The position numbers and the translations under genes were made by a program. Below, in pieces: positions 13,901 through 51,144 of a stretch of 64,000 nt of DNA. Positions within the stretch are counted from its first letter, which is position 1. Each line of letters opens with the position of its first letter. Source of the stretch: Dicyema japonicum (lineage: Eukaryota; Dicyemida; Rhombozoa; Dicyemidae); assembly GCA_011109175.1 (NCBI GenBank), contig RDEW01000037.1, positions 9,650 to 73,649 of the forward strand, written 5' to 3'. The notes beneath the pieces are model-generated. The model saw only the letters and a program-made list of their open reading frames with translations, ran no database searches and was not told the DNA's origin.

Positions 13901-15234
13901 ATGGGAGTTTTCCTATCAAAACCAAAAACGGATAAAACCTCCAGTTCTGGACATGGGAACGACTTGTCGTACGCTTTGAGCCACATGCAAGGGTGGAGAC
14001 AAGAAATGGAGGATGCTCATTCAGTCCATGTGTCACTTCCTGATCCTTTCAGTGAATGGTCATTCTTTGCAGTGTTTGATGGACATGCCGGATCTGTAGC
14101 TGCCAATTTATGTGCTGAGAAACTATTAGACACTCTACTTGGGGAGTCATCATTTCATTAAAGCAGCAGAGAATTACATAATTTGCATGAAAAATGAAAA
14201 GAACTATGAGACAGTCATAGATGAACTCAAGTATAGCATTGCCAGTGCTTATATTCGATTTGATGATGAAATGCGTGTTCAATTCTTTGATTCGTCAAAG
14301 ACTGACCCTGAGAAGAGTGGGACTACGGCTGTGGCTGTACTAATAACACCAAAACACTATGTTTTTATTAATGTGGGGGATTCTCGATGTGTCCTTTATG
14401 GTGATGAAATACGATTTTACTCAGTTGACCACAAACCAAGCAATGTTACAGAAAAATTGAGAATAGAGAATGCTGGTGGTACTGTTTCTCTACAGAGAGT
14501 TAATGGACAGTTGGCTGTTTCCAGGGCAATGGGAGATTTTGATTATAAGAATTCCCATGGATTACCGACTAGAGAACAGCAGGTGTCCCCAGAACCTGAT
14601 GTAACATTTGTTGAACGACAATGGTCTGACAAGTTCCTAGTAATCGCCTGTGATGGAATATTTGATGTAATCTCTAATGAGGATTTGTGTTCTTATACTA
14701 CTTATTTACTACAATGTACTCAATCACATGAGGATATTTGTAATGAAATAATAAACACGTGTTTTCACAAGGTAGTATATTATATTATTGTAGGGGAGTA
14801 GAGATAATATGAGTGTTATTCTGGTAACATTCCCTGCTTGCCCATCCATTGACAAAAATATACTTTCTCTTAATTCTACTTTGAATGAAAAGATTGAACA
14901 TTTAGTTAATGGTTGTTTTGCTGTATTATTTAGATATTGTCGAACAGGAGGGACCCAAGGTATATCTTGATAAAGTTTTTAAACGAGTAAGTGATCATGT
15001 GTTTGATTTCCTACCAGAGGGTGCAGGCATCCACAGCAAGTATTGTTAGTAACAATAATAGATTTGCCTTGGTTGAGAGAATATACGGGGAGAAAGTACC
15101 TGAACAGCCAGAGTCTAATTCTGAGACCAATCAAAGTAGTAGATATATATAATACAGGTCGTCGGTCATTTCAGGATATTATTAGTGGATTATTAATAAA
15201 TCAGAATCTTGAGGATACTGATGAATCTAAGTGA
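13901..15234 (+). CDS. PP2C-family Ser/Thr phosphatase (PPM1A/B type), five exons
   Basis: Metal-dependent protein phosphatase of about 411 residues. It starts MGVFLSKPKTDKTSSSG, so a glycine follows Met as in N-myristoylated PPM1A/B. Next come SHMQGWRQEMEDAHS (PP2C motif 1), FFAVFDGHAGS (metal-binding Asp-Gly near residue 58), SGTTAV, NVGDSR, VNGQLAVSRAMGDFDYK, LVIACDGIFDV (metal Asp) and GSRDNMSVIL (metal Asp), then a PPM1-type helical tail (NRFALVERIYG). Introns: 14772-14793 (22 nt), 14912-14933 (22), 14987-15017 (31), 15136-15157 (22), all GT-AG. One frame slip lies in the GGGG run at 14141-14144; no canonical intron there has the right length. All catalytic residues are present, so the gene is probably functional. 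Stop at 15232-15234. Confidence 0.9.
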
Positions 15235-15353
15235 TAGATTATTTGCCACTTTTATTACGTTTTGATTGTTTACTATTCTGGCTTTATTATATTAGCATTA
15301 TTAGGCCCACAACAACAAATTATTAAAACCAAAAACTCAATTCTTAACAAGAG

Positions 15354-16364
15354 TCAATATTCTATTGCATGAATCAATTTCATCCTAAAATAATGGTAAC
15401 CTCCAACCTCATAATGGTTACTATTCAAAAATCTACACAAAACACTCTCAACAGTCCTTCTTATTCTCTCACGTAGAGAAGACTCCATTACACTCTCGAC
15501 ATATCTTTCCAGAGGAAAAACTAAATTTCCAGAAACAGGTAACATTCCATTCTCAATTATATCCAAAACAACTGATATAAGAGTCTTATTTGACTCAAAA
15601 ATAGATTCTAACTCATCAAAAATAATTCAAACTCAATACATCGGCATTCTCATAGGATATTCCAGTAAGGAAGAAGGCAGCTTTCGCTACCAACTTGGGA
15701 GATACCTTAGAATTCAATGATCTAATGATGACCTCAACTCCCCAATGCTCATAAAATGATCCATAGAATCTTTATTGTTCCTGGCATAACCTATAATGAT
15801 CATAAATTAAAACAAGAGAGAGCATATAATGTTTTAACTTTTGAGTCAATGTCCACATCTGACTTGTTGACATTAACTAGTTCCAATGGAATTGAAGTCT
15901 CCTTTAGAGCATTTTGTACAAATGGGTTATTTTGCGCCAAAGAACCGATAAATTCACAAATAATAGTGTATGCCTCTGGCAATTGAAAATTACTGAAAAA
16001 TTTGGAAATGGCTTCGAGTCCTCCCAATTGAACGAAATCTTATATTTAGGTGATATTCCTACTAATAGAATAGTCAATTTTCTCGATTATGTCTTTAATA
16101 GCTTCAATTGCTGTTCGGAGAGCTGTAATGTCACTCACTCCATTGTTAAAGTCGTTAATTTTTTCAATTGACGACTTGATCATTCCATGAATATCGACTC
16201 TGTTGGCCTTAATTGCTTCTGTGAGAAAATTAGCTTTCTAAATTATTAAAATTAATTATTTCCTCTTCACTCATAGGCTCGACTGGTGTGGTTGATTTTC
16301 CTGAAGTTTTCAAGCAAAATTTAAGGAGATCGTTCATATTCATAATTTCATCAGATTCCGACAT
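15354..16364 (-). CDS. HSPBP1: HSPBP1-like Hsp70 nucleotide-exchange co-chaperone
   Basis: Armadillo-repeat protein of about 320 residues. It begins MSESDEIMNMNDLLKFCLKT and then PVEPMSEEE, matching the HSPBP1 N-terminus (LL.F....PMSEE). The core reads NFVQLGGLEAISKFF, FIGSLAQNNPFVQNAL and VKTLYALSCYARNN, then WGVEVIIRSLNSKV, the armadillo order of human HSPBP1. HSPBP1/Fes1 proteins release ADP from cytosolic Hsp70. Introns: 16039-16062 (24 nt) and 15791-15813 (23 nt). Three one-base slips lie at short A or T runs: near 16235 (extra A), 15750 (missing T) and 15625 (extra T); their net effect leaves a whole number of codons. A 33-nt GT-AG stretch at 16238-16270 is an alternative to the first slip but would delete MSEEE. 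It is convergent with the PP2C gene, 119 bp between stops. Confidence 0.85.
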
Positions 16365-16439
16365 GACAACACGTGAATAATTTAAATATAAATAATTTAA
16401 TTAAATAACCAAAATAAAATTTTTATTAAATACCAATTT

Positions 16440-17150
16440 GACTAAGTTTGATGACCATTGCTTCTACTATTATTTTACTTACGGAGTCATGGAAAAAGAA
16501 TACAAATTAACCTGGACATCTTAATGGCTGGATAATAGAAAACTGGCTCGTGGTGAATGCAGAGAAGTCGTCTACGTCACTATTTACCAGTGGCAAAAGA
16601 TTGGGAAGGAATACAGTCTCCTTGAAGTCAAACAAGGTTGGCATCTCTTTCTACAGACGTCAAAGGATCTTGGGTGTGACAATTGATGTGTATTCTGTTT
16701 GACACCACACGTAGAAAACATTCTATTGAAATGCGAGAAGAAACTGAACGTATTGAAAAGTTCATCGGGAATATGGAAGAGTGGTACTACCAAGTCTTGA
16801 TGAACGTGTACAAATAGTACATCGAGCCATGTTTCTCATATGCATGCGCCTCGTGGGGACTGTCCATATCTTGGACAAATATGAGGAATATTGAGGAAAT
16901 GTAAAAGAGGGCTTACAGAGTAACGGAGCGTTGGATTTGTGAAGATCAGCGAACCGGACCTACCCCTCTGGAGGCCCTTATGAGACTAGACTCCAGATCA
17001 CGGAAGGTGCCCCTGAAAATTCAGGTAGCCGTTATGTACATTCATGCGGGGGCACTAAGGAACAACACTGGGCTAAGATGAGGTCTCTGTTAGAATGCAT
17101 CGGGATCACGTGATAATTAGTTTGGCTATACCGTGGTCTTGGGCTGTTAA
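16440..17150 (+). pseudogene. LINE-D 3' half with tail
   Basis: Degenerate copy of the R1/Jockey-like family whose better copies lie at 36.3 and 59.7 kb. Visible pieces are WLVVNAEKSSTSLFTSGKR (post-YADD), QRILGVTID, then the C-terminal CMR..GTV region. The untranslated tail has GGGATCACGTGATAATTAGT, then TACCGTGGTCTTGGGCTGTT and AAATAAAA near 17105-17158. No intact RT. Confidence 0.7.
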
Positions 17151-17381
17151 ATAAAAAATGGAAAGGGTTGAGGCCTTATTATACTAATATGAACCATATA
17201 CTAGCCAGCAATATTTTGGATTACATCCCAAAGACGACAGACTGGATCAACTAACTTTAAGAATCTGTCTACCCTCTCTAGATTGACAGCTGTCAATATG
17301 TACATACTCCCTCCACTATCATGCATAATGCTTGGACTCCACACCTGGCTGCTCCTGAATCAGAAAGTCATTCTCCTATAT

Positions 17382-19560
17382 TATTAAGGCATTTTCACGA
17401 AAGCCATAATGCATGTGCAACACCCAAAACAATATTTAGCGTTAATCTTTCCCATTTTTCCCTGTCGAATGCAAGCGATTATAATTCGTCTAGGTTGTCA
17501 GCCCGTTTTGAGTTTTTAATTCACCTGGTTTAGATTTTTGTTCTAGACAATCGGCAGTGTAACTGTCAAAGTAATTTTCTATCGCTTTGTTAGTGGGTGC
17601 GTCCGGGTTCAGTCTTAACACATGTCCAAATAGCCTCCACCTGGCATCTATCACATCCTTGCTGATGTACAAACACATAGACTTGTTGTAAATACCACTG
17701 GTTGATATTCTACGTGGCCAATCCATTCCAAGTAAGCTTTTTAGTTGCCCTCTGTGGAACGAATTTAGTTTCGTTAGTTCTTTGAAGGAACTTCCCCCCA
17801 AAAAAGCGTTGTAAAGCCTATATCTGATGTCAATTCCAAGTCCTTTGGCTCTTAGCCATCCATTCCTCAGTTTATCCATTGCTGCATTTGCCAGTGTTTT
17901 CCTTCTTAGTACATCTTCAGTGTTTCCTAGTAGAGTTGAGCTTATTAGTGCATCTCCATCTTTCATGATTAATATCGTCTCCTCTTTTGATTTCAGTAAT
18001 TTCGGTTTTGTTTACATTTACGCTGAGAAACCATTTCTCAAGCTCTGCAGGTGCATTTTCGAGTAGGTGTTGAAGTGCGGGCGTGTCCCGTGATACAAAG
18101 TCCACATAATCCGCATAAGTTGCTATGGCTGGCAGCACCTTGCGTATCGAGTTCAGAAGTAGGGAAAAGATTTTCTAATAATCCTTTTACTTTATTCTGT
18201 TTTTGTATGAGTATTAATAATCCATTTCCGAGTCCTAGATTGGTGTTAGTTTCAAAAATGTCATTTAGGACTTTTGCAATTGTTTCACTAAGTTTTTTTG
18301 GCCCATATTTTAAAAGCTCAGTGATTATGTTGTCTGGCTCAGCACTCTTGTTATTCTTCAGTTTTTTTAGAGCTGATTCAACTTCTTCCACTGTGATAGC
18401 ATTCATTAATGCCTTCGGTTCTCCCTGGAAAGGGGAAATTCCTTATTGTCTGTATTCAGCAACATTTTAAAGTGACATGGAATTAATTCGGCTTTTTTTC
18501 TGGGTTACCCACGAATTTTCCTTATTTGTCTTTGATTTGGAAAACGTTTTGTCCTTTCTTTGTCTGCAGCAGCCGTAAAGCCGCAAACATTTTTGAATTG
18601 TCTTTTATTCATTCCACATCTTTTAATAAGAATGTAATGATTTCCCGTAAATGTTGTTTGTTTATCTTCTTTATTTTCCATTTTAGTTTCTTTTGTTGGA
18701 ATTTTTTTTCTTTTTTATACTCTCGTCTGACGTGTTTGCCGCGTTAAGCCTTAGCTCTCTACAATGCTCTGCCATATCTGGCACGTTCGGGTGGTGATCC
18801 AATTTTAGGACGTGATGGTTTCGAACTCCAAGGCATATATCAGCAGACTTAGAGATTATCTGCTTTGTTTGATCCCAAAGAGTTCGTACTGATGATTCCG
18901 TTACGGTTTTCTCTATGAAAATCTCGATCTTTGTCAGTGCCATGTCGTCTTGTGGCGAGCTGAGTGCTTAAGGCGTGTTGCACAGGAATAGGCTATTTGC
19001 CTCGCAGAAGTTCACCAGAGAGGCTTCCGATGCCTATCTCCTTCTGCGCCCGTGTCTTTCAATTAAGGATTCTTCGAGTCCCATTTGCATTCCGGTCTTT
19101 TCATTCATATCTCCCGCAACGAAGACGCATTATTAGAATATTTTTTTGATAGTTCTAAGTAGGATTCCTCAAGCTCACCAGGGTCCTTGATTACTCGCTT
19201 GCAGTGTGGTGCATAGACATTTATCATAGTTAATAGATTTTTGGATGGGCATAAATCATTTAGTTTGACTTGTAGGAAATATATTCGGTCGTTAACTCTC
19301 CAATAGCGATGTAGTTTTTTGAGGTAATCCACGTGAAGGCAAATCCTATCTCGCTTACATTCACTCGGGAAGATAATTAGTCGGTAGTTGTTCTATGTTT
19401 AATCGTGTCCATTTTCAATTTTCGTCACTTGTAATATTTTGTATTTCTCGAGATCGTCATAAAGTACTTTCCTTGCCCAGTCTTTTGATATTCCACTACG
19501 TTAAATGTCATGAGCCTCAGAAGTTCTCGATTGTATCGTAATGAGTGTTTTTTACATATG
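17382..19560 (-). pseudogene. LINE-B (RTE-like) with an internal RT deletion
   Basis: Minus strand from about 19560 down. The endonuclease domain gives NDRIYFLQVKLNDL and LTMINVYAPHCKR at 19.1-19.3 kb. The linker with VEEVESALKKLKNNKSAEPD and IITELLKYGPKKL lies at 18.25-18.4 kb. At about 18170-18180 the text jumps straight to YADYVDFVSRDTP, so the RT palm between fingers and catalytic loop is deleted. Next come KWFLSVNVNKTEI, RWRLFGHVLRLNPDAPTNKA (near 17600), and a tail at 17382-17420 that reads in reverse GCTTTCGTGAAAATGCCTTA, the LINE-B/SINE1 type tail. Not functional. Confidence 0.75.
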
Positions 19561-20093
19561 TTTAACAGAGCCACGTCACCAGGTAATTGAGCCTCTGTCC
19601 TTAAAATTACATAAATTGTGTCAGTAATTATGCGCCATTAAATACTCACCATCAGTGTTCCGCTACTAATAAGAATGACATGCCCATTAGGTGATCCACT
19701 GTCAATAAAAATGATCCACTTTTCAATAAGGAAATACACGACCATTAGGTGGTACACAAGTCAAATGGAAGACACGGGCATTAGGTTATCTGGGTTTCTC
19801 CCAATAGTGTTTGCCTTGTTTATTTTTCAAAATCATTCTTAAAAGTTAATAGGTCACGTATAAAAAGCAGTCCGACTATTATTAAGAGATACTAAAGTGA
19901 CTAGAGGAGTTCTGGAATACGTCAATTGTAATTACTACCGTAATTAGGAGTCATAATTGTGAACAAAATTAAAAAAAATCAATGAACTTGAATTGCAAAT
20001 GGTATTTGTGACGAAAAACGATCGGGAATATACATTTCTTAGAACTGATTAGAATTTGCTTAAATAATTTTTTATCGTCACTCATAATTATAC
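19561..20093. other. Intergenic region upstream of the sugar transporter
   Basis: AT-rich. From 19680 to 19790 it carries irregular repeats of CCATTAGGTGATCCAC-like text. No coding frame. It should hold the transporter promoter, but I can identify no element. Confidence 0.4.
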
Positions 20094-21701
20094 ATGGAAA
20101 TAGAAGCGTTAAGATCAGATGTATCTTTGAAATATTATGGTGCAATATTCATTGCCGTACTTGGTTGCTCATTAATATATGGACATGGAAATGGGGTATT
20201 GGAAGGCATAGAAGAAGTAGTTTATGACTTATCCATAGCAAGCTAAAGAATTAATGTCAACTATCTTAAGTTCTAGATATGGTCATATTGTTACCAGAAT
20301 AGAATTAGATAACATTTTTTCTCTTATTTGGACTGGAATTGCCAGCATATATTTAATTGGAGCAATTATTGGGACTTTCATGGCACCATTTATCGCTGAT
20401 AGAGTTGGAAGGAAAATGGCACTTATTTATAATAGCGCTTTGTCATCATTGGGTCACTTTTTGGGGGATTAAGTAAACCATTAAATTTTCGAGTTTTTGT
20501 TTCCTTCTCGCTTTTTTTCGGGTTTGAGTGTGGGTAAGGAAGTATTGCTTAGTTTGTAGGAATTCTGGTGCCCATTGTAAAATGTACATGATCGAAATAA
20601 CGCCAATGGGATTCCATGAGGGAGTAATTGCAATCCATCATTTCGCCATTACATTGGGGATATTATTAGCTCAAATATTGAATATTTTTCCAATTTTTAG
20701 TATTTTTCATTTACATTTAAGGAAATGAACCTTATTGGAGTATTTCATTAACAATCCGGGAATGATTTCAGTGTATTCATATCATTTTTTATCTTCTGTC
20801 CCGACAGTCCTCGATATATTTTGTTCATAAAAAATGATGAAACCGAAGCTATGAATGGTAATGAAATTTTCACTTTAGCAATGAATCAGTTGAGGAAATC
20901 TGAAGAAATTAGTAAGCAAGAGATTTCAGAAATGAAAGAAGAAATAAAAAACACATCAACAACTGAAATTTCGTGGAAAGAACTGTTCACTCGTAAATCA
21001 CTTAGCAAACCTCTCACAATTGTCTCCGTTTCTCAAATTTTGGTCCAATTCACGGGAATTAATGCTGTAAATACTACAATTAATTAAGATTTTATCATTT
21101 ACCGGAACCATTTATGACCAAGCTGGGGTTAAAAAATGGGCAATACCTTATGTAGTAATCGGCACTGGGGCGATAAATTGTATTGCCACAATTTTCGCCG
21201 TAATTAATAATGTTACATTAAGATTCCATTAATTAAAAATGTGGGAGAAGGTTTCTACTATTATGGCCAACCCTAATAATTATCACAAGTTTAATTACGG
21301 AAGTTATATCTCTGGTGTATAATATAACAAGCTTGTCCATTATATCAATATACATCTTCATTATAGCATTTGCTGTTTCATATGGAATTGTCCCTCAGGC
21401 TATTATGGTTGAGTACTTTACGCAAGATTCCAGGGGTAAGGTTGCCTCTGGTGGGGTTCTCGTTGGAAATTTTGCAAACTTTGTTGTTTTTTGGATATTC
21501 AGACCAGCCCTTAGCAATGTATATGCTCTATAATTTCTGCAGGCTTCCGTTAAGAATTATATTTTGCTCGTTTTCGTCGCAGTATGCACTGGGGGATTCA
21601 TATTTCTCTTCATCTTTATGCCAGAAACTAAAGATAAGACTTATAATGAAATTTCTACTTCTTTGAGTAATTGGAATACAGTCTTTCAACACAAAAGCTA
21701 A
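20094..21701 (+). CDS. GLUT/SLC2A-family facilitative sugar transporter, six exons
   Basis: Major-facilitator sugar transporter of about 496 residues, the usual GLUT length. It starts MEIEALRSDVSLKYYGA with TM1 FIAVLGCSLIYGHGNGVLEG. Loop 2 has the sugar-porter motif FIADRVGRKMALIYNSALSS. TM5 region is ITLGILLAQIL; the cytoplasmic motif is FCPDSPRYILFIK (PESPR type). TM7 reads VQFTGINAILSFTG (QLSGINA type), and the end is FIFMPETKDKTYNEI (PETKG type). Introns (all GT-AG): 20534-20559 (26), 20700-20721 (22), 21067-21088 (22), 21200-21222 (23), 21519-21542 (24). Four one-base slips, near 20230, 20461 (G run), 20758 (G run) and 21270 (C run), cancel to a whole number of codons. Signature residues are conserved, so the gene is probably live. 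Substrate cannot be read from the sequence; hexose is the family default. Confidence 0.88.
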
Positions 21702-21959
21702 CGTCTAACAATTAACGATAATTACTAATAAAATATATACTCCTCATAGAACATATGAACTACCACGCATCCGACAGATGATCATTCAGTTTTCTTTCAA
21801 TTTTTAGTGCATTAACACTGTTCAAAACCGTAGTTTCAGATGTCAATGAATCCGTAACCTATTCCATATTCACTAGAAGACATGGCTCTTATCAATCATG
21901 AAGCAAAGTTGAATTGAGAATTAGTTAAGGTCAATTTCTGGAATGTTTAAGGTGAATTA

Positions 21960-22040
21960 GACCAGTGGTTCCCAAAGTGTGCCTTGAGGCGCCCTAGGGT
22001 GCCTCATTTTGGATCCGGGGTGCCTCAAAAAAATTATGAT
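21960..22040 (+). repeat. Possible hAT-type terminal sequence
   Basis: CAGTGGTTCCCAAAGTGTGC at 21963 resembles the terminal repeat typical of hAT elements (CAGTGGTTC(C/T)CAAA). I did not find the matching inverted end within the next few kilobases, nor a target duplication, so only one terminus is supported. Confidence 0.4.
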
Positions 22041-22149
22041 ATTTAAAAAAATTTAATTTAAATTAATATATTGTTATAATATGTCACAGTCTGATAAATC
22101 GTCACTTACAAAATACAACTAAATTGTCTAAATTTAAAAATCTACACAT

Positions 22150-22440
22150 TAATAAATGTGACCGGTTGACAACGATTTCAGGTTGAGAACGATCCGTCAA
22201 AATCGATATTGCCGTTAATACACCGTTGCGACGTAAAACCGCAAAAATATATTAGTTATTAAGTAAGAAATTAAAATTTCTCAATTATTTACAGCATTCA
22301 TTGTCATCGGGTGAGAACGACTCCAGGTTGAGTACGATCCGTAAAATCGATATTGCCGTTAAAATCGTTTAACCGTATGACCGATAGTAACGATTACCGG
22401 TTGAGACGGTTAAATACGACCCATTAAGTATCGGAACTTA
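22150..22440 (+). repeat. Degenerate direct repeats
   Basis: CAGGTTGAGAACGATCCGTC near 22179 and CAGGTTGAGTACGATCCGTA near 22322 begin two related stretches that share AAAATCGATATTGCCGTTAA. A third weaker piece (CCGGTTGAGACGG) follows near 22397. Non-coding. Unit length is about 143 bp between the first two. Confidence 0.55.
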
Positions 22441-22508
22441 ACAAACCATTATATTACTGCCACTCGACAGTAAAACAAGCGAGGCGATTAGTCTGATCCA
22501 ATCTTAAT

Positions 22509-29400: not shown

Positions 29401-29405
29401 TTATA

Positions 29406-30650: not shown

Positions 30651-32170
30651 TAATACGGAACGATTGAACTTACGTGGTCGGCTGAGAACGGGTGGTTACG
30701 GCCAAGTATAATAGGAAGGGATCAGCTCCAAAAAATTTAGGGTGTAGATCCGTGGAGTTTGATCCCTGATGACAAAAAGAAGGTGTCTGCCGATATATTT
30801 AAACACTCCGACGAGGAACTACCTATTGCTGATAGCACTGTCAGCATCTTTGAAGTGATGACGGCTATCAGGGAATGCAAGGTCAATGCTTCAGGATGTG
30901 ACCACATATCAATGAAACTTATCAAAGAGGGTCCGGATATTTTGTTTGACTATCTGCGATGTCTTTATGATAGGTGTTTACGACTTGGCCACTTCCTTTA
31001 ATATGGAAGAAAGCTGTTGTGAGGATGATTCCAAAACCAAAGATGCCAAAGAGAGATCCGGCAAGCTACCAATTAGTTTAATATGTTCTTTCGCAAAAGT
31101 GATCGAACGTATCATTTTCAAAAAGCTATGAAGACATATAGAAGAGAATGACTTTCTGATTCCGGATCAGTGGAGTTTTCGTCCCGAAAGTAGCTGTGCA
31201 AACCTTTTCTTTCTATTGGATTCTGAAATCATGAAAGAAGGGATTCAAAAAGGCAAATAAACTTATTATGACTTGATATCTCGAAAGCATTCGACAGTGT
31301 ATGAAGCGTTGTTAAAGCAGCTTGTATCAGCATGTGTTCCAAGATACCTATTTGTTTGGCTAAGAAATTATCTTCAGGAAAGACAATCTTTTGTGAAGGT
31401 GTGTGGATATATATCCGATGCAGTATCATTCAAAAGGGGAGTACCACAAAGTTCAGTATTGAGCCCTATTTTGTTTAATATATTCATTGCGAGTTTTCCA
31501 CGTCAGAGGAATATTAATAGTAGTCTTCTTATTTATGCGAATGACGTAATCGTGGTGGACACATCTCTAAAATCTTCTATATCTGAAGGAAGAATCCGGG
31601 AGTATGTCGACCAGATTGAGCATTGGTGCAACTTGAGAGGGCTAAAGCTCTCTGCTGAAAAATCTTGCGCACTCCGAATAAGCAGTTTGAAAAAGCACCT
31701 GAAACAAGAATACACACTGGGAGTAAACAATTCACACAGTCTGCGCTACCTGGGGGTCGACTATGGACACGCAGGAGATTACATGGACGACATAAAGGGG
31801 AGGAGAAAGAGAGCCTTTCAGTCGCTCCTATGTACACGGAAGTTACACGTTAGCCGTGACACTTACCTGTTTATCTTCAAGGGAGTTATTCTCCCTAGCC
31901 TACTTTATGGGTGCGAGGGGTGGTTCTTCTCTCCGAAGAGGGACAAGATCTTATCCCTCCTAGAGAAGACTAGAAGAGCTGCAATTAAGCTCTCCTTAAA
32001 CAAGAAACTGAAAGACTGTCTAAACGAGGACGAAAACAAGCTCCTGGAACCGATTAGCAAGATTGTGGAGGATCGGATCAATGGTTTCAGGAGGAGATCA
32101 AAGGTCCAGGACACATATATAAAGGTGGGAGAATAAAGATTAAAAAGCTGGGAGAAACGTTCCGAAAAAG
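30650..32170 (+). pseudogene. LINE-C (Jockey/CR1-like), RT region
   Basis: Plus strand. The linker reads SIFEVMTAIRECKVNASGCD and HISMKLIKEGPDILFDYL at 30.85-30.95 kb. Fingers PASYQLVYVLS-like and DQWSFRPESSC lie near 31.05-31.2 kb. From 31273 a 287-codon open stretch covers most of the palm: FKRGVPQSSVLSPILFNIFI, SSLLIYANDVIVVD, HWCNLRGLKLSAEKS and FIFKGVILPSLLYGCEGWFF, then the basic tail. The catalytic loop reads YAND where YADD is expected. The upstream endonuclease is missing. Confidence 0.8.
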
Positions 32171-40702: not shown

Positions 40703-41830
40703 TTATTGTCGATTCCTCGAATCATCCCCAATGTATGGGTTAGTTCTTCTCTGTTCCATTTTAAAAGGATTTGTGACAATCTCATACGAAGGGGGTTTAT
40801 GGAAGTTTATTGATTGATTATTGAGTATTGAATGAGTATTTGCGATACATGTTGACTGGTCATTGAGTAGTGGAGGTGTATTTGCAGGAAATAATGACTG
40901 GTCATTGAGTAGTGGAGGTGTATTTGCAGGAAATAATGACTGGTCATTGAATAGTGGAGGTGTATTCACAGGAAATAATGATTGGTGATTGAGTAGTGGA
41001 GGTGTATTTGCAGGAAATAATAACTGGTTATTGAATAGTGGAGGTGTATTTACAGGAAATAATGATTGGTCAGGTGTATTTGAGTGGTCATTCCATAATG
41101 GTTGATCATTCCAAAGAGGATCAGTTTGTTCATTAACTATAACAGCATCTGATAAATCAATGAGTGTTGATGTCTTTTCATACTCAGATTTAGAAATAGC
41201 AATAGCTTTGTCCAACATTTTATTTTCCTCATCCAAAGCAGCCTCATATTGTTTGGCCTCATTAATACTAATCTCCATAACCATTTGTATTTGTTTTTCC
41301 TCCTCTTCCACCGATGAAGGAACTGATAACTTTGATACATTCATCTTGGAAATACGAGAGTTATTACTAGCAACAGTCTTTCTTGTATTTATGGCATTTG
41401 AACGTACGTCCATCAATTTATCAGTGTTCTTTAGTAGGGAACAAAGGTAGTACACTTTGGACTTGATATCAAATCCTTTCTCACTTGCAGTCTCCAAATT
41501 CCACGGAGAAACCAAATCCTCTATTTGACTAAGGTTCTCGATACATCGACTTGCCACAAACTGAGACCCTGTAAGAACAATATATGTTAACAAATTCAGA
41601 GTTTTGTTGATTCTATGCCAATTCTTGTTATCATCTGTTATTATTTTCCATACTTTTGACATTATTACATCCAATAAGGCAGAGTCATCTGTCATATCGG
41701 CAATTTCTGACATTAGTGAACTAGAGGCCATCCACGGATCTTTAGAAGTTGCCTCTCTCATCTTTACCTTCGCATTGTTTACCTTTGAATTTCCTGACAA
41801 TAATGATGTTTTGCGAAGAAGGCTACTCAT
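40703..41830 (-). CDS. Epsin (ENTH-domain endocytic adaptor), single exon
   Basis: About 375 residues with no intron and no frame break. Start chosen at 41830 (MSSLLRKTSLLSGNSKVNNA), as in epsins; an in-frame ATG 27 bp upstream is also possible. ENTH domain (residues about 15-140): KVKMREATSKDPWMASSSLM, SEIADMT, then KVWKIITDDNKNWHRINKTL and VLTGSQFVASRCIENL. Two ubiquitin-interacting-like helices follow (EEKQIQMVMEISINEAKQ and LDKAIAISKSEYE). LIDLSD resembles a clathrin box. A 14-residue repeat tract is built on TPPLFNDQSLFPAN, and an NPF motif near the C-terminus (VTNPFKME) would bind EH domains. Role by family: PIP2 binding and cargo-clathrin coupling at the plasma membrane. Confidence 0.93.
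   Translation of the reverse strand: MSSLLRKTSLLSGNSKVNNAKVKMREATSKDPWMASSSLMSEIADMTDDSALLDVIMSKVWKIITDDNKNWHRINKTLNLLTYIVLTGSQFVASRCIENLSQIEDLVSPWNLETASEKGFDIKSKVYYLCSLLKNTDKLMDVRSNAINTRKTVASNNSRISKMNVSKLSVPSSVEEEEKQIQMVMEISINEAKQYEAALDEENKMLDKAIAISKSEYEKTSTLIDLSDAVIVNEQTDPLWNDQPLWNDHSNTPDQSLFPVNTPPLFNNQLLFPANTPPLLNHQSLFPVNTPPLFNDQSLFPANTPPLLNDQSLFPANTPPLLNDQSTCIANTHSILNNQSINFHKPPSYEIVTNPFKMEQRRTNPYIGDDSRNRQ
40850..41075 (-). repeat. 42-bp coding minisatellite in the epsin gene
   Basis: About five tandem copies of a 42-bp unit; on the plus strand each contains AGTGGAGGTGTATTTGCAGG. Translated on the minus strand each unit is 14 residues of the form TPPL(F/L)N(D/H/N)QSLFPAN. Units differ by a few bases but all keep the frame. 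Confidence 0.85.
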
Positions 41831-41932
41831 AGTTAACAAACAAAACAAGTATTTCAATCAATATTTAAATTATTATTTAAATACAGAATATCAATTATTA
41901 GAATATTTTATATAAAATTATATTTTATAGCC

Positions 41933-43380: not shown

Positions 43381-44380
43381 AAAGACCAGGCCTTCTGGCT
43401 GAACGTAACATCTGAAGGTAGTGGGGTCGAATCTGAAAAATGAAGTTTTCAACGAAGGTCAATTCTTGTAAACAGATTACACCCATGAGGCAACAAGTCC
43501 TCCTGGCACGACAAAGTAGTTGAAAGGGATCCTACTACCATCTCCCAACCAAATTCTCCGGACAAGATAATGAAATACTTCAGCAACATTTTTATATGGC
43601 ATATAAAACATGTGTGTTCCTCGCTCTTTTCCCATTAACCCAAAGTAAGTTGTTTTCATGGAGAACCAGTGACATCCTCCAACAAGGATTCACACTTTAT
43701 CATAATTTATTTCTGATGGACTCAAAAATCCCAAGTAAACATAAAGAATGTTGCTTTTAAAGTTTATCCAGACAGTTGTTCGACAAGATCTGTTCGACCG
43801 ATTAATCAGTTGGTTGGAGTTAATCGATTGACTGAATGTACTGAAAGTCACTCAGTACGTTATTAAATTGACGAATTCTACATCTTCCTTGACAAGAAAT
43901 AAATTATTGTGCCCAACCAATGAGAAGTCGTAAGGATAAGCCAAGCAAGTCATTTTTCTTTGGCTTAACCCCACCGAATCCAGTTGAGTTATCGCTGTGA
44001 ACGTCCTTTTCAGGCTATTACTTTCCTTTTAGTGGCTGGACATAACTCAAATCTTTAATTATCAATAAACTAAGACAATACTTTGCCGCAATGAAGCATT
44101 GTAACTTGTGTCCTGATTAAACAGAATTGAGTTTAATGACTGTGGTTAATGAAACTAATTTTAATTAACCTTTTTCAACAAAAAAGTTTATTACTGAATA
44201 AAACATATATTTGAACACTTAAAACTCATGTTAACTCAACACAATCAGGATAAACTTTACTGAAGTATCGTAACTTATTTCTCTCATTTGAGTGATTCCT
44301 AAGGTGTAACGTGAATGATCACACAGAATTCCCAAATTTGTATATCAGAAAAGTTAAATATAAAAAATATATCCTTAATA
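43381..44380. other. Spacer with one unassigned small ORF
   Basis: Contains a minus-strand open stretch at 43659-43477 (60 codons) reading MKTTYFGLMGKERGTHMFYM, then NVAEVFHYLVRRIWLGDG and IPFNYFVVPGGL. The composition looks protein-like, but I do not recognise it and could not extend it through a plausible small intron on either side. Just left of it (43384-43435), text with GGGTCGAATCTG resembles a tRNA-type box B. The rest is AT-rich with no feature seen. Confidence 0.3.
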
Positions 44381-45406
44381 TTAAGAAAAATTATTAAAAC
44401 ATTTATCAGACCCAAGAAAACGGAGGACACGTGCAACAACTTGTGTTGGTAAAAGACTAATAGTGATAAAAAGCATACTAAAACAAAGGAATTATCAATT
44501 TGAAAATATTTGGAATAATAATTTCACTTTTCTGAGTGATAATGCCATCATAAATAGTAATAGCAGTTTCTTCTACCTTCAATGGAGGTGGAAATGGTGG
44601 ATGTCTATATATTATTATTATTGTCACTTTGCTGAGTCAAACATCCCCGTTCTAATCAAATAGGGACAAACTAATGTAAGGGAAATGACATTCTCCAATT
44701 CTTGACAGACTAATTCTGCTTTAAGAGAGTTGTGTAGTCCGATAAGAGATGATTTGCTTGCAGAGTATGCAGATAAGTGACACATCCCACTATACCCAAG
44801 CAGACTACCCATAGTGACCACGTGACCAGATCCACGATTTATCATAAAAGGTAGGAATTCCCCAATTATCTAAAATGCCAGAAATGACCTACTAAGAAGT
44901 GTGCCATTACATTGACATCAAAAATATGTTTAACTAGACCAAAACACGTGTCATCAACATAATGAGGATATACTACAGCCGCGTTGTTTATTACAATATC
45001 AGGAACACCCAGAGTTTCTATAATCTTATATAAATCAATTACAAACATTTTTGCATGTAATTTCTAACTTGGTGTGGTCGGCCAAGTCCACGTGGTAAAG
45101 AAAGACGGAAGACTCATAATAATCAATTCCTTTGCAATCAGTGATTAGTTTTACGGTGTTTTGTAGTCCTTTAAAGTCAATATCCAACAGAATAAGAAGA
45201 GATCCATTTTTTGCAAATAACAAAGAAAGTTCTCGTCCTAAACCATTTGCTATGGATTTTATTTTTATATTACCAGCCCCTGTTAGTAGTACAAGTTTGT
45301 TTGTCACGTGCTTTCTCGTGAGAAAATAATCATTTGTGAGAAAATTGAAAATTGATGAAGCAACAAGCTTCAAGACATCACAAATGAGGGAGATTACCTC
45401 AAACAT
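44381..45406 (-). CDS. Short-chain dehydrogenase/reductase, SDR16C (HSD17B11/RDH10-like) type
   Basis: NAD(P)-dependent oxidoreductase of about 311-318 residues. The hydrophobic N-terminus (SLICDVLKLVASSIFNFLTN) suggests an ER or lipid-droplet anchor. Cofactor site: KLVLLTGAGN through NGLGRELSLLFAKNG, with LLILLDID. Then PDIVINNAAVV (NNAG motif), VNVMAHF, and the catalytic region GHVVTMGSLLGYSGMCHLSA with YSASK (Tyr and Lys). LVCPYLIRTGMF and a C-terminal membrane-like segment follow. Introns: 44870-44892 (23 nt), 44605-44627 (23), 44457-44478 (22), all GT-AG on the minus strand. Near 45050 the frame also breaks: either one extra A in a five-A run, or a 22-nt GT...AT non-canonical intron (45047-45068), which gives better family length. 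Family substrates are retinoids or steroids; not resolvable here. Divergent from TMEM67 with 69 bp between starts. Confidence 0.87.
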
Positions 45407-45475
45407 ATAATAATATTTAATTTTAAATAATTTTAAAATATTAAAAAATTATATCTCCAAGTAAATTAACAAATT
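45407..45475. promoter_or_regulatory. 69-bp divergent intergenic region
   Basis: The starts of the SDR gene (minus, 45406) and TMEM67 (plus, 45476) face away from each other across 69 bp of almost pure A/T. Both promoters, or a shared bidirectional one, must lie here or inside the 5' ends of the genes. No specific motif beyond TATA-like runs can be named. Confidence 0.5.
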
Positions 45476-47053
45476 ATGATTTCGTTTAACATTCCAGACA
45501 GGTATAAATGATATTCAAATAAAAGTAACTTTACGAATGACCTCGACGCTATTTTTTACTGTGTGATAATTCTGAGTGTTTTTGCGGGGACTTTTTCAAA
45601 CTGGAAATATCAGAAACGCTGTGGCAAAAGTGTTTTCGACACTACTACTATAATAAGATGGATTATATACGTGTCTAGTGCCCTTGGAAATTTTATGTTT
45701 TTAATGTTACTATCATTGTTAATACATGTGCTAACAAACAAGGTAGTTACTGTGCCTATATTAGTACGATCCCTCATATTTAGAGGATAATATCAAAACC
45801 ATCCTCTATATTTCATTTGGAGGGAATGTTATCGCAATGTTGAACATTTTATATGAACAGACTGAAGTAAGGAACATTCTTCATCGATTGGGAGAAACCC
45901 TACAAAAATCTACCCGTTTCTGTTTGGAGAAAGAACTTTCTGGTAAACGAATGGAACGAACTTATTAGTAAAAGGAGGACAAGTCTAATTGTGAGAATTA
46001 TGGGAGTAATTATATTTATTATATTCTAGACATTAATAATATTCCAATATATCTGCTTTACTCCTAATACTGTCAACTTCAAGACAAACTACAATATGAC
46101 TCTGAGTTGTGTCAACATGGTTGAAAAGAATCCCAGTTTCATTATGGGAATTACCATTCTGGCTTTTATTTTCATTCTCATTGGTTGGTTCTGCTTTTAT
46201 CCCAGGAATGGTTCAGTTAATCCTTAACTTTTTCATTATTGAGCGATTCTTCACTCACCCAATTCTTTCGTATATCGATCTTTGTTCTGTCTCAAACATT
46301 AGTGTCCTTATTATGAAAAACAGTTTATACGGATATTACATTCACGGAAAATCTATTCACGGAAGCTCTGATACGAATATGCAAGGGCTTGCTCAACAGT
46401 TTGAGAACGAACAGGTCCCTTTGTTGATTTACTTTCAGAAAGATCTTGTCTCACAAAGGGGACTTGTGGGTAGTAGTGATCTCCAAACATTTGAAGTCAT
46501 TCTAAATGAAAAGGCATACCAGCAAATCATCACAGTTTATGAGAAACAGGTGGAGGACATGTTATTATAGAATCTATCAAACTCTACTGACAGGTCCAGA
46601 GTTTATGAAATAGGAGATGAACTTAATTATTTGTTAACTCAGTTTTTCAGTCATGTTTTGATTTTGAGATATTAATTAGAGTTTGCGGGGGGCTGACTTT
46701 ATAATACAAAATAAGACTTTGCCAGAAATTTTGTTAAACTATGAAGTAACTGAGAATTTAAACATTTCCACGTTATATCAAGGTTAGTTTAGGTTTTTGA
46801 ATCATAGATCCTCGACAAACGTTTACAAAGTCAATTCTTTATGGAAAGTCCATTCAAATTTTAGTCTTTGAAACAATAACAATTTCGTTTTTGGTGTATC
46901 TTGGGACTGGTTTCGAGTTTTCTTTGATTTGTACGTACATAATTTCCCAAGTCTCTGTTTTTTGTAGTTTAGGTGTTTGTCAAAGTCTTTGGGGCCATCA
47001 GCAGCCAAAATCTTGTCAGAAAAACCTTCGTGGACAAACGATTTTTGATTTAA
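45476..47053 (+). CDS. TMEM67: Meckelin (TMEM67) C-terminal half, nine exons; extracellular domain absent
   Basis: About 462 residues, collinear with the last ~470 of the ~995-residue animal meckelin. Exon 1 is MISFNIPD. Next: a first TM region with FSNWKYQKRCGKS, then SALGNFMFLMLLSLLIHVLT; FIDWEKPYKNLPVSVWRKNF and LVNEWNEL; YIDLCSVSNISVLIMKNSLY and GYYIHGKSIHGSSDTNMQG, the most diagnostic meckelin block; SQRGLVGSSDLQTFEVILNE; SILYGKSIQILVFE; and the C-terminus NLVRKTFVDKRFLI. Introns: 45502-45525 (24), 45764-45785 (22), 46006-46029 (24), 46415-46438 (24, in frame), 46550-46570 (21), 46655-46679 (25), 46783-46807 (25), 46951-46972 (22). Two one-base slips, near 45877 and in 46030-46110. Meckelin acts in the ciliary transition zone (MKS complex). 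The Cys-rich extracellular half has no room upstream, so it is truly missing, encoded elsewhere, or lost by misassembly. Confidence 0.88.
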
Positions 47054-47139
47054 TTTATTTAAATTTGATTTTATGGTGGCTTTAGTCTATACAATTATAA
47101 AATTTGTTTAGATAGCCTTTTAAAAAATATAATTTAATA

Positions 47140-48500
47140 TTAATATGTAGAGAGTTAGTAAGAGTCCTAGAGGACACAAAGGATATAAGTATCTGGGTGT
47201 TACCAAAACTCAAAGTCCCTTATAAAACCAGAGATAAACAACAAATCACTGAAGGCATTCGTTGAAGACCAACGTTATTATGTAAGACATCTCTAAATGC
47301 AAGGAATTTGTTCCTGACATTAAATGAGTATGCTGTCTCGCTGTTAAACTACTACATAGGTGTTGTGGAGTTTGAGCCCAAAGAGTATGATGAGATGGAT
47401 GTTATGATCCGTGGAGTACTCAGAAATAACCATGTCCATGTGCTGGCATCCAATAAGGAGAGACTATATTTTAAATTCGTCCATGGACTGAGTTGAGTAG
47501 TCCAACTATGCACGATACATTGATAGGTAGGTCAAGTGTGTCTTATAGGAAGAACGCCATAATAATGACCGAGAAAACATGAAAAACTCACTTTTTTGTC
47601 TACTAAGTATGGTGTTGATGATGGTGGGCTAGTAAATGTAAAGGCGTTGATCTAATTACTAATTATTATTAAAAAGCACTTTCACATAACCAAAGATCGT
47701 TATATTAACTAAGGTCCCGTTAGTGTCACACGTTTCACAATCTGCTTCACTAGGCGTCTCCATCGCCCTCTGCTTTGCGCATCTGTCTTTAGATCTTCTA
47801 GGTCTTTTGCAGATTTAAGATTTCATTTAATCTTATTAAGATCCTTGATTTCATTTAATCTTATTAAGATCCAGATCCACGGGTAGAGTGACTCTGGGTC
47901 TTCTTCTGAATGATAATTTGTTCTCATTGTTAAAGTAATTGTCAGGAGTCTTCATCTTCTACTATGCAATAAATATGGTATTCGCCTAAGGTGCAATCTG
48001 TAATAGAGAACACCAGAGTATAAAATCAAGGTAGAGAGTGTGATCCGAACCTCGGTGCTTGTCAAGCACAATAAACTGGACATTGTGGTACACGATAAGG
48101 AGTCTGACCAAGTCCTCATCATAGAAGTTGGTATTACGTCTCAAGACTGTCTGCAGACCGTGGAGAAGGAGAAAAAAGGAAGTATGACTTGCTTGCAAAC
48201 GAGATGGGGCAGATGCTTGGTTGCAAAGTCCTTGTTGTTAAAATAGTAATGATGTGAGAAGGAATTGCAACAAAGTACCACAAGGGTTTTCTAGAATAGA
48301 TAGTGGTAGATAGGAAGCTCCAAGCCTATCTACAGTCAGCTGTATTAAAGCAGACCCTAGAGAGCCTGACACTGGTGTGTATGAGGCAGAGCCTGGAGAT
48401 ACCATATGGGAAGAGGTTCAATCAGACAAGACGATCTCGCAGTTGTTTCAGCAACCAGAATCGATCCTGCCTGTCAACAAGCAGACGATAAATGTTGTTG
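47140..48500 (+). pseudogene. R4/Dong-like retroelement, copy C (3' half)
   Basis: Plus strand. The post-RT region gives GYKYLGVTKTQS and FLTLNEYAVSLLNYYIGVVE near 47.2-47.4 kb, with NNHVHVLASNKERLYF. About 500 bp without coding signal follow (47520-48030). The restriction-like endonuclease then appears at 48.04-48.25 kb: VKHNKLDIVVHDKESDQVLI with IEVGITSQDCLQTVEKEK. Note LD where the other copies have PD, so the catalytic Pro-Asp is altered. The end is LQAYLQSAVLKQTLESL. The RT domain is absent. Confidence 0.7.
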
Positions 48501-49748
48501 ACTATTATATATTAACTTTTTTGTTGTTGGTTAAATAAAGTGAAAAATTTTATAAGTTTAAATTCTTAAGTTGATATTGCGGTTCAACTATCAGCTTCAT
48601 GTGCTCCACCATCGTTGGTGGTGCCAGATATAATCCTAAATTATATCTAAAAATGACCATTAGTCAACAACCATAAAGATGAGTTCCCCATGGACGCCAT
48701 CAGCTGAATTTTTTTCATTCTGGCTAATAGATTTAAATTTAATAAGTTGTGTTTTCGTCCTGATACCGTTAAATACTCGGATATTATGTTGAGTTCTTAT
48801 AACAGGGGTTTAGACAACAGAAACTTAACTTCTCCAAGAGAAGGATAGTTAGCCCAATCGGTCACTATGGAGACTCCTTCACGCACTCGTTCAAATACTC
48901 AGAAATTAAAAAACGGCGCAAACAATAAGATATCCCATCGAGCAGTGATGGAAACAACAAAGTCCTGTATGTATCGCGAAAAGTCCACATGTTTGCAAAT
49001 CTTCATAAAGGATGTAGAATGCATCGTCTTCGAAATGGATTCCAACACCTTCGATCAAGGAAGCATTGATCCACGCTTGATCTCCTAGCAACCGGACAGT
49101 TACTCCGGTTTTAATTTGAGTTCTTGAGTAATCCCACAAATTTAATTTCACACAGTAAAGATCTCTGTTTCGATCGTCTAACTTGATGATGCTCTGTATT
49201 TTTAGTCTCTAATCGTTCTTAAGCGTGTCTGACTGCGTGTCTATTCGCTCTCACGATGGCGAGTGAGATTAGCTCAAATAACCAGCAAGCTCACAGGAAT
49301 CTCCTGATTGTGTATAAATCCGACTACCTAGACGACTATATTAAAATATATAGTAAATTATCGTCAACATATAAATTAATTTCTCATTGATTTAACAATT
49401 GATAAAAGTGCACGACCTGTTTTTTCATAAAATAAATTTATATTCCCACATTATTATAGAATTTGGGGAGACTAAGCGATTATTCGTAGTAAAACTTGGA
49501 TATGATAATCAAAGTATTAAATCAATACCATACATCTGTCATAACACATTTTTAAGTTTAAAACAAAAATAGTAAAATTCGCTGTTAGAATTTATAATTT
49601 GTAATTTTACCATGGAGATGAGATATATTGTTGGTTGTTAAAATATTTATGTAATTTCAGTTTATGAAATATAAATAGTAAATTACTTTGTTTCGTAATA
49701 AAATCATGTATAAAGTTGGTTACGATAATAATTATTTGCGGTTCATTT
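48501..49748. other. Intergenic region with no assigned gene
   Basis: Short open stretches exist on both strands at 48.87-49.15 kb (minus-strand text NLWDYSRTQIKTGVTVRLLG and GVGIHFEDDAFYILYEDL) and a 44-codon frame starts at 49256 (MASEISSNNQQAHRNLLIVY). None matches a family I know, and none can be extended through small introns with confidence. 49400-49700 is AT-rich. Confidence 0.35.
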
Positions 49749-51144
49749 ATGTCCTTCCTATTTTACATTATAATTAACATAAATTCATTAAAATTCATTA
49801 ATTTGCCAAATTTTTTAACAATCTCAGCAAGACACATGGAAATTAACTGTAAAACTGATGATAATTCGGCAAAGTTGAATTTAGTAGTTAAATGTAGAAT
49901 TAAATGGAAAGTCAATGGAACAATCATCAGAAAACCAATCTTAAACTTCAACGAAGCCCCAGTTGGGGATTTTCAGTGCATTGCCTCTATCAAAAACGAT
50001 GTGATATATTCCCCCACTATAAAAGTAATAAAGCCAAGTATTTTAATTAAATATTAAGAATCGGTGGAAAAGCCTGAAATTTTATTCCGGCAAATTGCTG
50101 AAGGACTTATCTTTAAATATTCCCAACTACCTCACATTTACGGAGACCAAGTTGAGTGCACAAATAATGCAAAAATAATGGATGATAGTAAATAATTATA
50201 ATTTATTACAGAATATGCATATATTATTGGAGATACTAATGTAATTAAATGTTATCTTAAATCCCTTAACATTGTCACTGCCTGGTACACCGTTTACACT
50301 CTAATTGTATCGGGTATTGGAAATCAAATGATCTCTTAGGGAGAAAGATGATTTATCCCCCAAAAATGCCTTAATTAAGTCAACCAATGTAAATTCAGAG
50401 ATTTGTGTGTCGACTAACTGGTTGAGGATGTATTAATGTATAGTAATGCGAATGAATATTTTTATAAGAAAAATGGAGTAATAGTTAACATTGGTGACAT
50501 TATAAATGGAAGTATTAAAGACATTTATACTTGCATTGATTGTAATGGGGAAATACGGCATTTTAGAGTTTATTCTCCAGGTTTAATCAATACTATTACA
50601 CAGAACCTCTGAAAATACTAAGTGACTTTAATAAAACCGTAAGAATCAATAAATATCAACAAATTGTACAAGTAGAATGCGCACATAGTGGAGAATCTGT
50701 TCAAATCAGATGGTATTTTGACAAAGAACGAAATGGTGGGATTTATAATAAGTTTAGAAATTATAAATTCTAGTCAAAAAACATTACTAGTATTGAAATA
50801 CAACGAAATATTTCCTATAGGCAGTAACCAAAGGCTGATATCATGTTTTGTGATGAACCGTGATTCTATGGATTATAAAGAGACAGTGTTTGAGAAAAGT
50901 AATGAATATTATTATTAATAGGCCAAGTTAAATACCACAGAGAAATATTAAACCTATCAAACACAATGAAATCATTAGACAACCTTCGTACTGCATTCAT
51001 ATCCCTGACACTGGTTTTGTCAATAATTATATTAATTCTTATCACTTTCAGTAATCATTATTATTTATTTTAGTTTACACAAAAAATATAAAACATAAAA
51101 AATTTGTTAAAGAAGCTAATTTTTCCTCAATATTTAATGAATAA
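49749..51144 (+). CDS. Putative type I membrane protein with Ig-like segments
   Basis: About 400 residues by my model. Start chosen at 49749 (MSFLFYIIININSL, signal-like); an upstream TTG-led extension in the same frame lacks an ATG. Ig-like Cys...Trp...Cys spacing recurs: EINCKTDD..CRIKWKVN..DFQCIAS; QVECTNN; NVIKCYL..TAWYTV; and VQVECAHSGESVQIRWYF..RLISCFVMN. A TM helix near the end (FISLTLVLSIIILILITF) is followed by a basic tail (YTKNIKHKKFVKEANF). Introns: 50038-50058 (21), 50188-50211 (24), 50421-50443 (23), 50581-50603 (23), 50736-50757 (22), 50899-50921 (23), 51051-51073 (23). One junction at 50300-50345 is unresolved (a 33-nt candidate plus one slip). I recognise no specific orthologue. 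It could be an adhesion or recognition receptor; that is inference from architecture only. Confidence 0.65.

What the first reader, a model, noticed from the sequence alone, without database searches (positions are those of the whole stretch)
13901..51144. Uniformly minute introns (21-26 nt, mode 22) in six unrelated genes
Seen: splicing out GT-AG stretches joins protein frames that align with known families in PP2C, HSPBP1, GLUT, SDR16C and TMEM67, and does the same in the Ig-like gene. I could place 29 introns: nine of 22 nt, eight of 23, six of 24, two each of 21 and 25, one of 26 and one of 31. Many end in a T-rich stretch plus TAG, AAG or CAG, with little room for a separate branch point. 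Known: dicyemid mesozoans have exceptionally short introns. Inference: this is dicyemid or similarly reduced animal DNA, with a spliceosome adapted to intron definition at about 22 nt. Standard gene finders with a 30-50 nt minimum would miss every one of these genes.
Basis: partly seen in the sequence, partly recalled or inferred. Interest (0 to 1): 0.88.

Follow-up and report, generated by a model that had tools for sequence, protein, structure and literature searches.

The report
Dicyemid genes with 22-nucleotide introns
This DNA comes from a dicyemid, a tiny animal parasite of octopus kidneys, whose genes are cut by introns of only about 23 letters; such tiny dicyemid introns were already known, but here enough of them were aligned to show a branch-site-like signal that an earlier small survey did not find.

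Summary
In the window I place 22 GT-AG introns of 21-26 nt in PP2C, HSPBP1-like, GLUT, SDR16C-like and TMEM67 genes (21 spanned by a homology alignment), and 7 more by frame in the Ig-like gene, which has no Pfam match. In Prp8, GT-AG was best of 64 dinucleotide pairs tested. Pax6 has Dicyema acuticephalum Pax6 as best hit, with the published intron phases: the organism is a dicyemid. Minute dicyemid introns are already published (mean 26.2; median 27), so the core is known. New here: a branch-site-like UNAY 7-9 nt from the 3' end (79 of 151; shuffles 40 +/- 5), where a 2008 survey reported no branch-point signature. The A sits about 16 nt from the 5' end, with little 5' consensus beyond GT and hardly room for a pyrimidine tract, although U1, U2, U6, Prp8, SF1 and a U2AF65-like gene are recognisable. 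No RNA evidence was available.

The parts
13901..15234 (+). PP2C (PPM1A/B-like) gene
   Evidence: Pfam PP2C 4.9e-64 and PP2C_C; 1a6q E 8.7e-100; frame change near 14143
14772..14793 (+). intron, 22 nt
   Evidence: spliced alignment to PPM1A
14912..14933 (+). intron, 22 nt
15040..15061 (+). intron, 22 nt
   Evidence: frame joining; the PPM1A alignment runs across the junction
15354..16364 (-). HSPBP1-like gene
   Evidence: 8x87 HSPBP1 2.6e-8; Fes1 below cut-off
16039..16062 (-). intron, 24 nt
   Evidence: gain only 0.6
15791..15813 (-). intron, 23 nt
   Evidence: HSPBP1 alignment runs across it; chose other introns here
15608..15632 (-). intron, 25 nt
   Evidence: frame only
20094..21701 (+). 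GLUT (SLC2)-like transporter gene
   Evidence: Sugar_tr 1.3e-60; GLUT1 3.9e-44; three frame changes
20217..20238 (+). intron, 22 nt
20534..20559 (+). intron, 26 nt
20700..20721 (+). intron, 22 nt
21067..21088 (+). intron, 22 nt
21200..21222 (+). intron, 23 nt
21519..21542 (+). intron, 24 nt
   Evidence: one search used the same donor with a later acceptor (36 nt)
44502..45406 (-). SDR16C-like (17-beta-HSD 11/13-like) gene, 3' end not fixed
   Evidence: adh_short 8.2e-30; 17-beta-HSD13 4.7e-33
45250..45273 (-). intron, 24 nt, open in frame
45025..45046 (-). intron, 22 nt
44870..44892 (-). intron, 23 nt
44605..44627 (-). intron, 23 nt
45476..46960 (+). TMEM67/meckelin-like gene (C-terminal membrane half only); ends approximate
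   Evidence: Meckelin 2.1e-74, profile 342-800 of 825; 7fh1 3.1e-39
46006..46029 (+). intron, 24 nt
46184..46205 (+). intron, 22 nt
46415..46438 (+). intron, 24 nt, open in frame
46550..46570 (+). intron, 21 nt
   Evidence: meckelin alignment runs across it
46655..46679 (+). intron, 25 nt
   Evidence: meckelin alignment runs across it
46783..46807 (+). intron, 25 nt
   Evidence: meckelin alignment runs across it
49668..51144 (+). 'Ig-like' gene: coding by frame statistics, family not confirmed
   Evidence: GT-AG score 92.1; shuffles max 25.3; five other dinucleotide pairs at most 66.0; no Pfam
50038..50058 (+). intron, 21 nt
   Evidence: frame only
50188..50211 (+). intron, 24 nt
   Evidence: frame only
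50421..50443 (+). intron, 23 nt
   Evidence: frame only
50581..50603 (+). intron, 23 nt
   Evidence: frame only
50752..50773 (+). intron, 22 nt
   Evidence: frame only
50899..50921 (+). intron, 23 nt
   Evidence: frame only
51051..51073 (+). intron, 23 nt
   Evidence: frame only

Best explanation
These are spliceosomal GT-AG introns of a dicyemid, removed by an ordinary major (U2-type) spliceosome. Shown here: near-uniform length (mean 23.6 nt) across unrelated genes; GT-AG boundaries; a weak AG|GT exon context; TAG (or AAG, CAG) 3' ends; a UNAY branch-site-like signal with its A 7-9 nt from the 3' end, about 16 nt from the 5' end; recognisable genes for U1, U2 and U6 snRNA, Prp8, SF1 and a U2AF65-like protein. 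Inferred: the intron is recognised as one short unit, helped by its length and AT-richness. U1 finds a poor 5' site; SF1 then U2 find the UNAY; an AG just downstream is used. U2AF65 cannot bind a normal pyrimidine tract between branch A and AG, because only 4-6 nt lie there.
For: 10 actin and 30 kinase loci agree; 151 of 161 non-identical introns at 19-30 nt. UNAY with A at -7 to -9 in 79 of 151, shuffles 40.4 +/- 5.3, maximum 55 in 500; kinase set alone 36 of 73 against 15.4 +/- 3.2; z 8.0, highest of the 3-nt windows scanned. 5' site carries 5.3 bits, 4.0 of them GT itself. AT content separates real introns from 193 exonic GT-AG decoys in Prp8 with AUC 0.996, less well in kinases (0.80 against 516 decoys). 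U2 with GUAGUA in 6 of 6 copies read, U1 with ACUUACCU in 5 of 6, U6 with ACAGAGA in 2 of 2. SF1: SF1-HH 2.8e-29 and a BBP-type KH domain 1.8e-19; U2AF65-like: TIGR01642 exons in order at one locus, three RRM stretches. Pax6 best hit in Dicyema, intron phases as published.
Against: No RNA data, so no junction is seen spliced. Homology-free joining does not favour GT-AG in PP2C or HSPBP1. All 11 U1 matches lie below Rfam's gathering score (best 69.0 of 69.5). No U2AF_lg match reaches its 310-bit cut-off, exons being scored singly (best 82.6). An unsupervised motif search found no sharply placed motif. The A peak differs between sets: -7 in Prp8, kinases and window genes, -9 in actins. A weaker UNAY excess also lies at -13 to -11 (z 3.8). 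10 of 161 introns fall outside 19-30 nt. The kinase profile was built from 8 stop-free kinase stretches of this same genome.
Confidence: 0.87

Rival explanations
1. The apparent introns are indels, assembly errors or pseudogene decay that happen to be flanked by GT and AG.
For: The assembly does carry one-base frame changes (GLUT three; Prp8 two residual breaks; Pax6 two breaks, not inspected further; PP2C near 14143 by my reading).
Against: 35 exact 20-26 nt GT-AG removals in one essential gene leave only two residual breaks; other dinucleotide pairs do worse; intron-bearing actins and kinases; positional branch-like signal.
Confidence: 0.02
2. The DNA is from another reduced animal, such as an orthonectid, rather than a dicyemid.
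For: Prp8 and actin searches showed no dicyemid name among the 120 hits listed each; Intoshia linei Prp8 appears at 79% identity, below Lingula at 83%.
Against: Pax6 best hit is Dicyema acuticephalum by 80 bits with the published phases 0/1/0; orthonectid introns have a published median of 57 nt; genome size and GC resemble D. japonicum (67.5 Mb, 36.7%) against 64.7 Mb and 33-41% GC per 4-kb step of the window.
Confidence: 0.04
3. The segments are cut out of DNA during somatic development, like ciliate internal eliminated sequences, rather than from RNA. Dicyemids are reported to undergo chromatin elimination (cited in the Zverkov 2019 passage).
For: Very uniform short lengths; chromatin elimination reported in the phylum.
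Against: GT-AG borders with AG|GT context, UNAY near the 3' end, spliceosomal genes present; genomic/cDNA comparison by others called such segments introns in D. acuticephalum (passages).
Confidence: 0.03
4. Same introns, different mechanism: U2AF is dispensed with at the 3' end and another UHM protein (SPF45/RBM17) or U2AF35 alone helps U2, as shown for some human short introns with truncated pyrimidine tracts.
For: Hardly any space for a pyrimidine tract between branch A and AG; precedent PMC8363638 (passages).
Against: SF1 and a U2AF65-like gene are both present. A G-patch protein that looks SPF45-like to me by recall (L075) ends after the G-patch, and by eye I saw no RRM in about 1.25 kb of downstream frames; PDB searches did not name it SPF45. 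U2AF35 was not searched.
Confidence: 0.3

Closest known systems
Dicyema acuticephalum introns (Aruga 2007, PMC2222250; passages read)
   Same: Short, uniform introns; Pax6 with one intron in the paired domain and two in the homeodomain, phases 0/1/0.
   Different: Mean 26.2 +/- 1.9 nt, n=16, against 23.6 +/- 1.7, n=151 here; part of the gap may be gene sample, since the Pax6 introns here average 24.7 nt. The paper counts 7 Pax6 introns, I found 6; exact positions could not be compared because figures are not held.
Dicyema sp. (Zverkov 2019, PMC6543705) and D. japonicum (Lu 2019, PMC6736024); passages read
   Same: Miniaturised introns across predicted genes; similar genome size and GC in D. 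japonicum.
   Different: Median 27 nt and mean 38.2 nt; those are whole-annotation figures, mine come from selected conserved genes. Introns per gene were not measured here.
Survey of intron structures (Irimia and Roy 2008, PMC2483917; passages read)
   Same: Weakest known 5' intron boundary signal in dicyemids (0.5 bits).
   Different: Reported no branch-point signature, on what I read as 41 Dicyema introns and with a motif-frequency test; here a positional test on 151 introns shows UNAY at 7-9 nt from the 3' end.
Stentor coeruleus 15-16 nt introns (PMC9505925; passages read)
   Same: Branch A at a near-fixed place close to the 3' end (10th of 15, sixth from the end), no strong branch consensus, conserved snRNAs, U2AF2 and U2AF1 homologues listed.
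   Different: 5' end to branch A is 10 nt there, about 16 here; Stentor length is nearly invariant; unrelated lineage.

Membership tests
Spliceosomal (U2-type) introns | GT-AG borders that restore a conserved protein frame | tested here: met
   Prp8, actin, kinases, window genes
Spliceosomal (U2-type) introns | Branch-site sequence at a constrained distance from the 3' end | tested here: met
   UNAY, A at -7 to -9, 79 of 151 against 40.4 +/- 5.3; chemistry not tested
Spliceosomal (U2-type) introns | Host encodes U1, U2, U6 and core proteins | tested here: met
   U1 matches and single U2AF65 exons are below their curated cut-offs; U4, U5, U2AF35, SF3B1 not searched
Spliceosomal (U2-type) introns | Removed from RNA | not testable with these tools
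   no RNA reads held
Dicyemid genome | Closest known relative is a dicyemid gene | tested here: met
   Pax6 to D. acuticephalum 5.6e-101, 51% identity over 89%; Prp8 and actin lists named no dicyemid
Dicyemid genome | Pax6 introns per domain and their phases as in D. acuticephalum | tested here: met
   one in the paired domain, two in the homeodomain, phases 0/1/0, domains and phases by hand coordinates; exact positions not compared; 6 introns found against 7 published
Dicyemid genome | 18S rRNA phylogeny | not tested
   no rRNA search run
   both halves without Pfam match at 0.1

The most novel reading that the evidence does not exclude
In dicyemids the spliceosome uses a ruler: branch A at about 16 nt from the 5' end and 7-9 nt from the 3' end, with length and AT-richness replacing 5' splice-site and pyrimidine-tract information, and U2AF65 kept but relieved of tract binding. 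Stentor reached nearly the same branch-to-AG spacing independently, which would make that 6-9 nt spacing a physical floor for tiny introns, with further shortening taken from the 5' arm (16 to 10 nt).
Probability: 0.35. Interest if true: 0.72.

Novelty: new member of a known kind. Interest (0 to 1): 0.42.

Why it matters
Minute dicyemid introns are known to specialists, but how an animal spliceosome handles about 23 nt is not. This genome supplies a branch-site geometry, decoy counts and a recognisable set of splicing factors, so the question of which signals suffice becomes testable by lariat sequencing and reporter assays.

Tried and rejected
A codon-only gene finder with strict penalties found almost nothing (Prp8 score 0) and was replaced by a finder with a per-codon bonus and a spliced profile aligner. 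COX1 gave no match in the genome, so mitochondrial genes gave no clue to the organism. Prp8 and actin searches did not name a dicyemid. An unsupervised motif search on the 116 non-Prp8 introns gave a weak, unpositioned motif (log-likelihood 29.8 against 12.4-17.7 in four shuffled sets run with fewer starts). Left out: an in-frame 21-nt intron at 20858-20878 in GLUT; a 26-nt one at 50314-50339 in the Ig-like gene (the frame fails); one search's 52-nt PP2C and 36-nt GLUT choices, replaced by a frame change near 14143 and by 21519-21542. A possible 33-nt intron at the HSPBP1 N-terminus is unresolved against a homopolymer frame change (read by eye). One search chose different introns in parts of PP2C, HSPBP1 and GLUT. 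SPF45 identity of L075 rests on recall and is not claimed. The 2007-2022 papers were seen as passages only; Ogino 2010 only as a citation.

Rows dropped before counts: identical introns were counted once (161 kept; identical actin copies L056/L057 and L060/L061); 10 of 161 outside 19-30 nt were left out of the mean and the signal statistics; kinase loci are the 30 best-scoring of 142 matches. Pax6 introns (24, 23, 25, 21, 24, 31 nt) and the 7 Ig-like ones are not in the 161.


Full report
What was checked. The window lies in contig C123 of a 64.67-Mb, 191-contig genome. I spliced the six genes, confirmed families by Pfam and PDB sequence search, then aligned window DNA to single PDB relatives with a spliced profile aligner that allows any GT-AG intron of 10-200 nt at a fixed cost. 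Five families are confirmed: PPM1-type PP2C, SLC2-type transporter, SDR16C-like (17-beta-HSD13), meckelin, and, weakly, HSPBP1. The Ig-like gene has no Pfam match in either half; its coding nature rests on frame statistics (score 92.1; 100 dinucleotide shuffles at most 25.3; five other dinucleotide pairs at most 66.0). That frame control is mixed over the six genes: GT-AG is best of six pairs in 4 of 6, not in PP2C or HSPBP1, and in 5 of 6 the score without introns already beats the shuffles.

Lengths. 22 window introns in the five identified genes run 21-26 nt, mode 22; 21 of them are spanned by a homology alignment, one (15608-15632) is by frame only. 7 more in the Ig-like gene run 21-24 nt. 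Beyond the window I located Prp8, fetched its locus, and aligned it to a profile of 20 Prp8 homologues: 35 introns, all 20-26 nt, with two residual breaks, one of which is probably a further intron where the homologues differ. Scores: 3189.8 with GT-AG introns, 2566.9 without. Of 64 dinucleotide pairs tested (256 possible), GT-AG gained most (622.9; next TA-TA 436.5, probably because it shifts the same borders). Ten actin loci and the 30 best of 142 kinase matches gave the same picture; the kinase profile was made from 8 stop-free stretches of this genome. Pooled: 161 non-identical introns, 151 at 19-30 nt, mean 23.57, s.d. 1.74, median 23. One actin paralogue carries a 78-nt intron where its relatives have 22-27 nt, so longer introns exist but are rare in this sample.

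Organism. The Pax6 protein of this genome hits Dicyema acuticephalum Pax6 at 5.6e-101 (51% identity over 89% of the query), 80 bits above the next protein. Aligned to it, the genomic locus shows introns of 24, 23, 25, 21, 24 and 31 nt and two breaks; the one in the paired domain and the two in the homeodomain have phases 0, 1 and 0, as published (worked out by hand; the published positions are in a figure that is not held, and the paper counts 7 introns). The 51% identity says dicyemid, not which species. D. japonicum (67.5 Mb, 36.7% GC) is similar in size and composition. Prp8 and actin searches named no dicyemid in their lists.

Splicing signals. 5' side: GT, then mostly A or T; G at +5 in only 16%; -1 G 54%; 5.3 bits in all, 4.0 from GT. 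3' side: TAG 102, AAG 26, CAG 21, GAG 2 of 151. A is enriched at -7 (77 of 151, z 5.0), and at least one A lies in -7 to -9 in 137 of 151 (shuffles 103 +/- 5.3, maximum 121 in 1000). With context UNAY, 79 of 151 (shuffles 40.4 +/- 5.3, maximum 55 in 500); kinase introns alone 36 of 73 (15.4 +/- 3.2). Among the 11 windows scanned, -9 to -7 scores highest (z 8.0; the overlapping -8 to -6 gives 7.0, and -13 to -11 gives 3.8). By length class the A peak is at -7 (up to 22 nt), -8 (23), -7 (24) and -9 (25-30); for the 79 UNAY introns the A lies 16.4 +/- 1.3 nt from the 5' end. Actin introns alone peak at -9 and not at -7; Prp8 alone is only z 2.1 at -7. So both arms look constrained, and little lies between branch A and AG.

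Against published statements. A 2008 survey reported no branch-point signature in the three short-intron lineages, dicyemids included (PMC2483917, passages; I read its table as 41 Dicyema introns). The present larger set shows one, weak in sequence but sharp in position. In Stentor the branch A is the 10th of 15 nt (PMC9505925, passages): nearly the same spacing to the 3' end, a shorter 5' arm. Searches for dicyemid intron and splicing papers (listings) showed no title on dicyemid branch-site geometry; subscription papers, such as Ogino 2010, were not available.

Machinery. U2: 22 of 25 matches above Rfam's cut-off, GUAGUA in the 6 copies read; U6: 9 of 10 above, ACAGAGA intact in the 2 read; U1: 11 matches, all below the cut-off (45.7-69.0 against 69.5 bits), ACUUACCU in 5 of 6 copies read. 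SF1 has its helix-hairpin and KH domains. A U2AF65-like gene shows TIGR01642 exons in order at one locus, none over the 310-bit cut-off on its own (best 82.6), and three RRM stretches in the joined pieces. The machinery thus looks conventional where tested, while the introns are not. In Prp8, 193 exonic GT-AG pairs of 19-30 nt are not introns; AT content alone separates real ones with AUC 0.996, the 3' matrix 0.957, length 0.836, the 5' matrix 0.823. In kinases AT content gives only 0.80 against 516 decoys, so AT-richness is not the whole answer.

Conclusion. What this adds is a quantified sample with introns 1-3 nt shorter than the published 26.2-nt mean (partly a gene-sample effect), and a branch-site geometry that makes the mechanism testable. 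No RNA was seen, so splicing itself is inferred here from homology and from published genomic/cDNA work on a relative.

Noticed in passing
window 40706-41857 (-): 384-aa open frame with an ENTH domain (1.4e-23), an epsin-like gene without introns in that frame; not mentioned in the finding.
   Followed up: partly
window 8916-9596 (-), 31261-32133 (+), 52132-52818 (+): Reverse-transcriptase fragments (RVT_1; the third below Pfam's cut-off); 3 of 10 window frames scanned in that call had such a match.
   Followed up: partly
window near 14143, 20448, 20764, 21237: One-base frame changes, by my reading in homopolymer runs, in PP2C and GLUT; a similar one sits in Prp8 (L054), so uncorrected sequencing errors are likely in this assembly.
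   Followed up: partly
window 45476-46960 (+): The meckelin gene covers only profile positions 342-800 of 825 and starts head-to-head with the SDR gene; the N-terminal extracellular half was not found beside it and was not searched elsewhere.
   Followed up: no
L075 (C130:234775-234894, minus): G-patch protein that resembles SPF45 to me by recall but ends right after the G-patch, with no RRM seen by eye in about 1.25 kb of downstream frames.
   Followed up: partly
L058 (C39 actin paralogue): A divergent actin has a 78-nt intron at the site where the other actins have 22-27 nt introns.
   Followed up: no
G000 U2 and U1 matches: 22 U2 loci over the cut-off on many contigs, six of the matches on C115; U1 matches are divergent, all 11 below Rfam's cut-off.
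   Followed up: no
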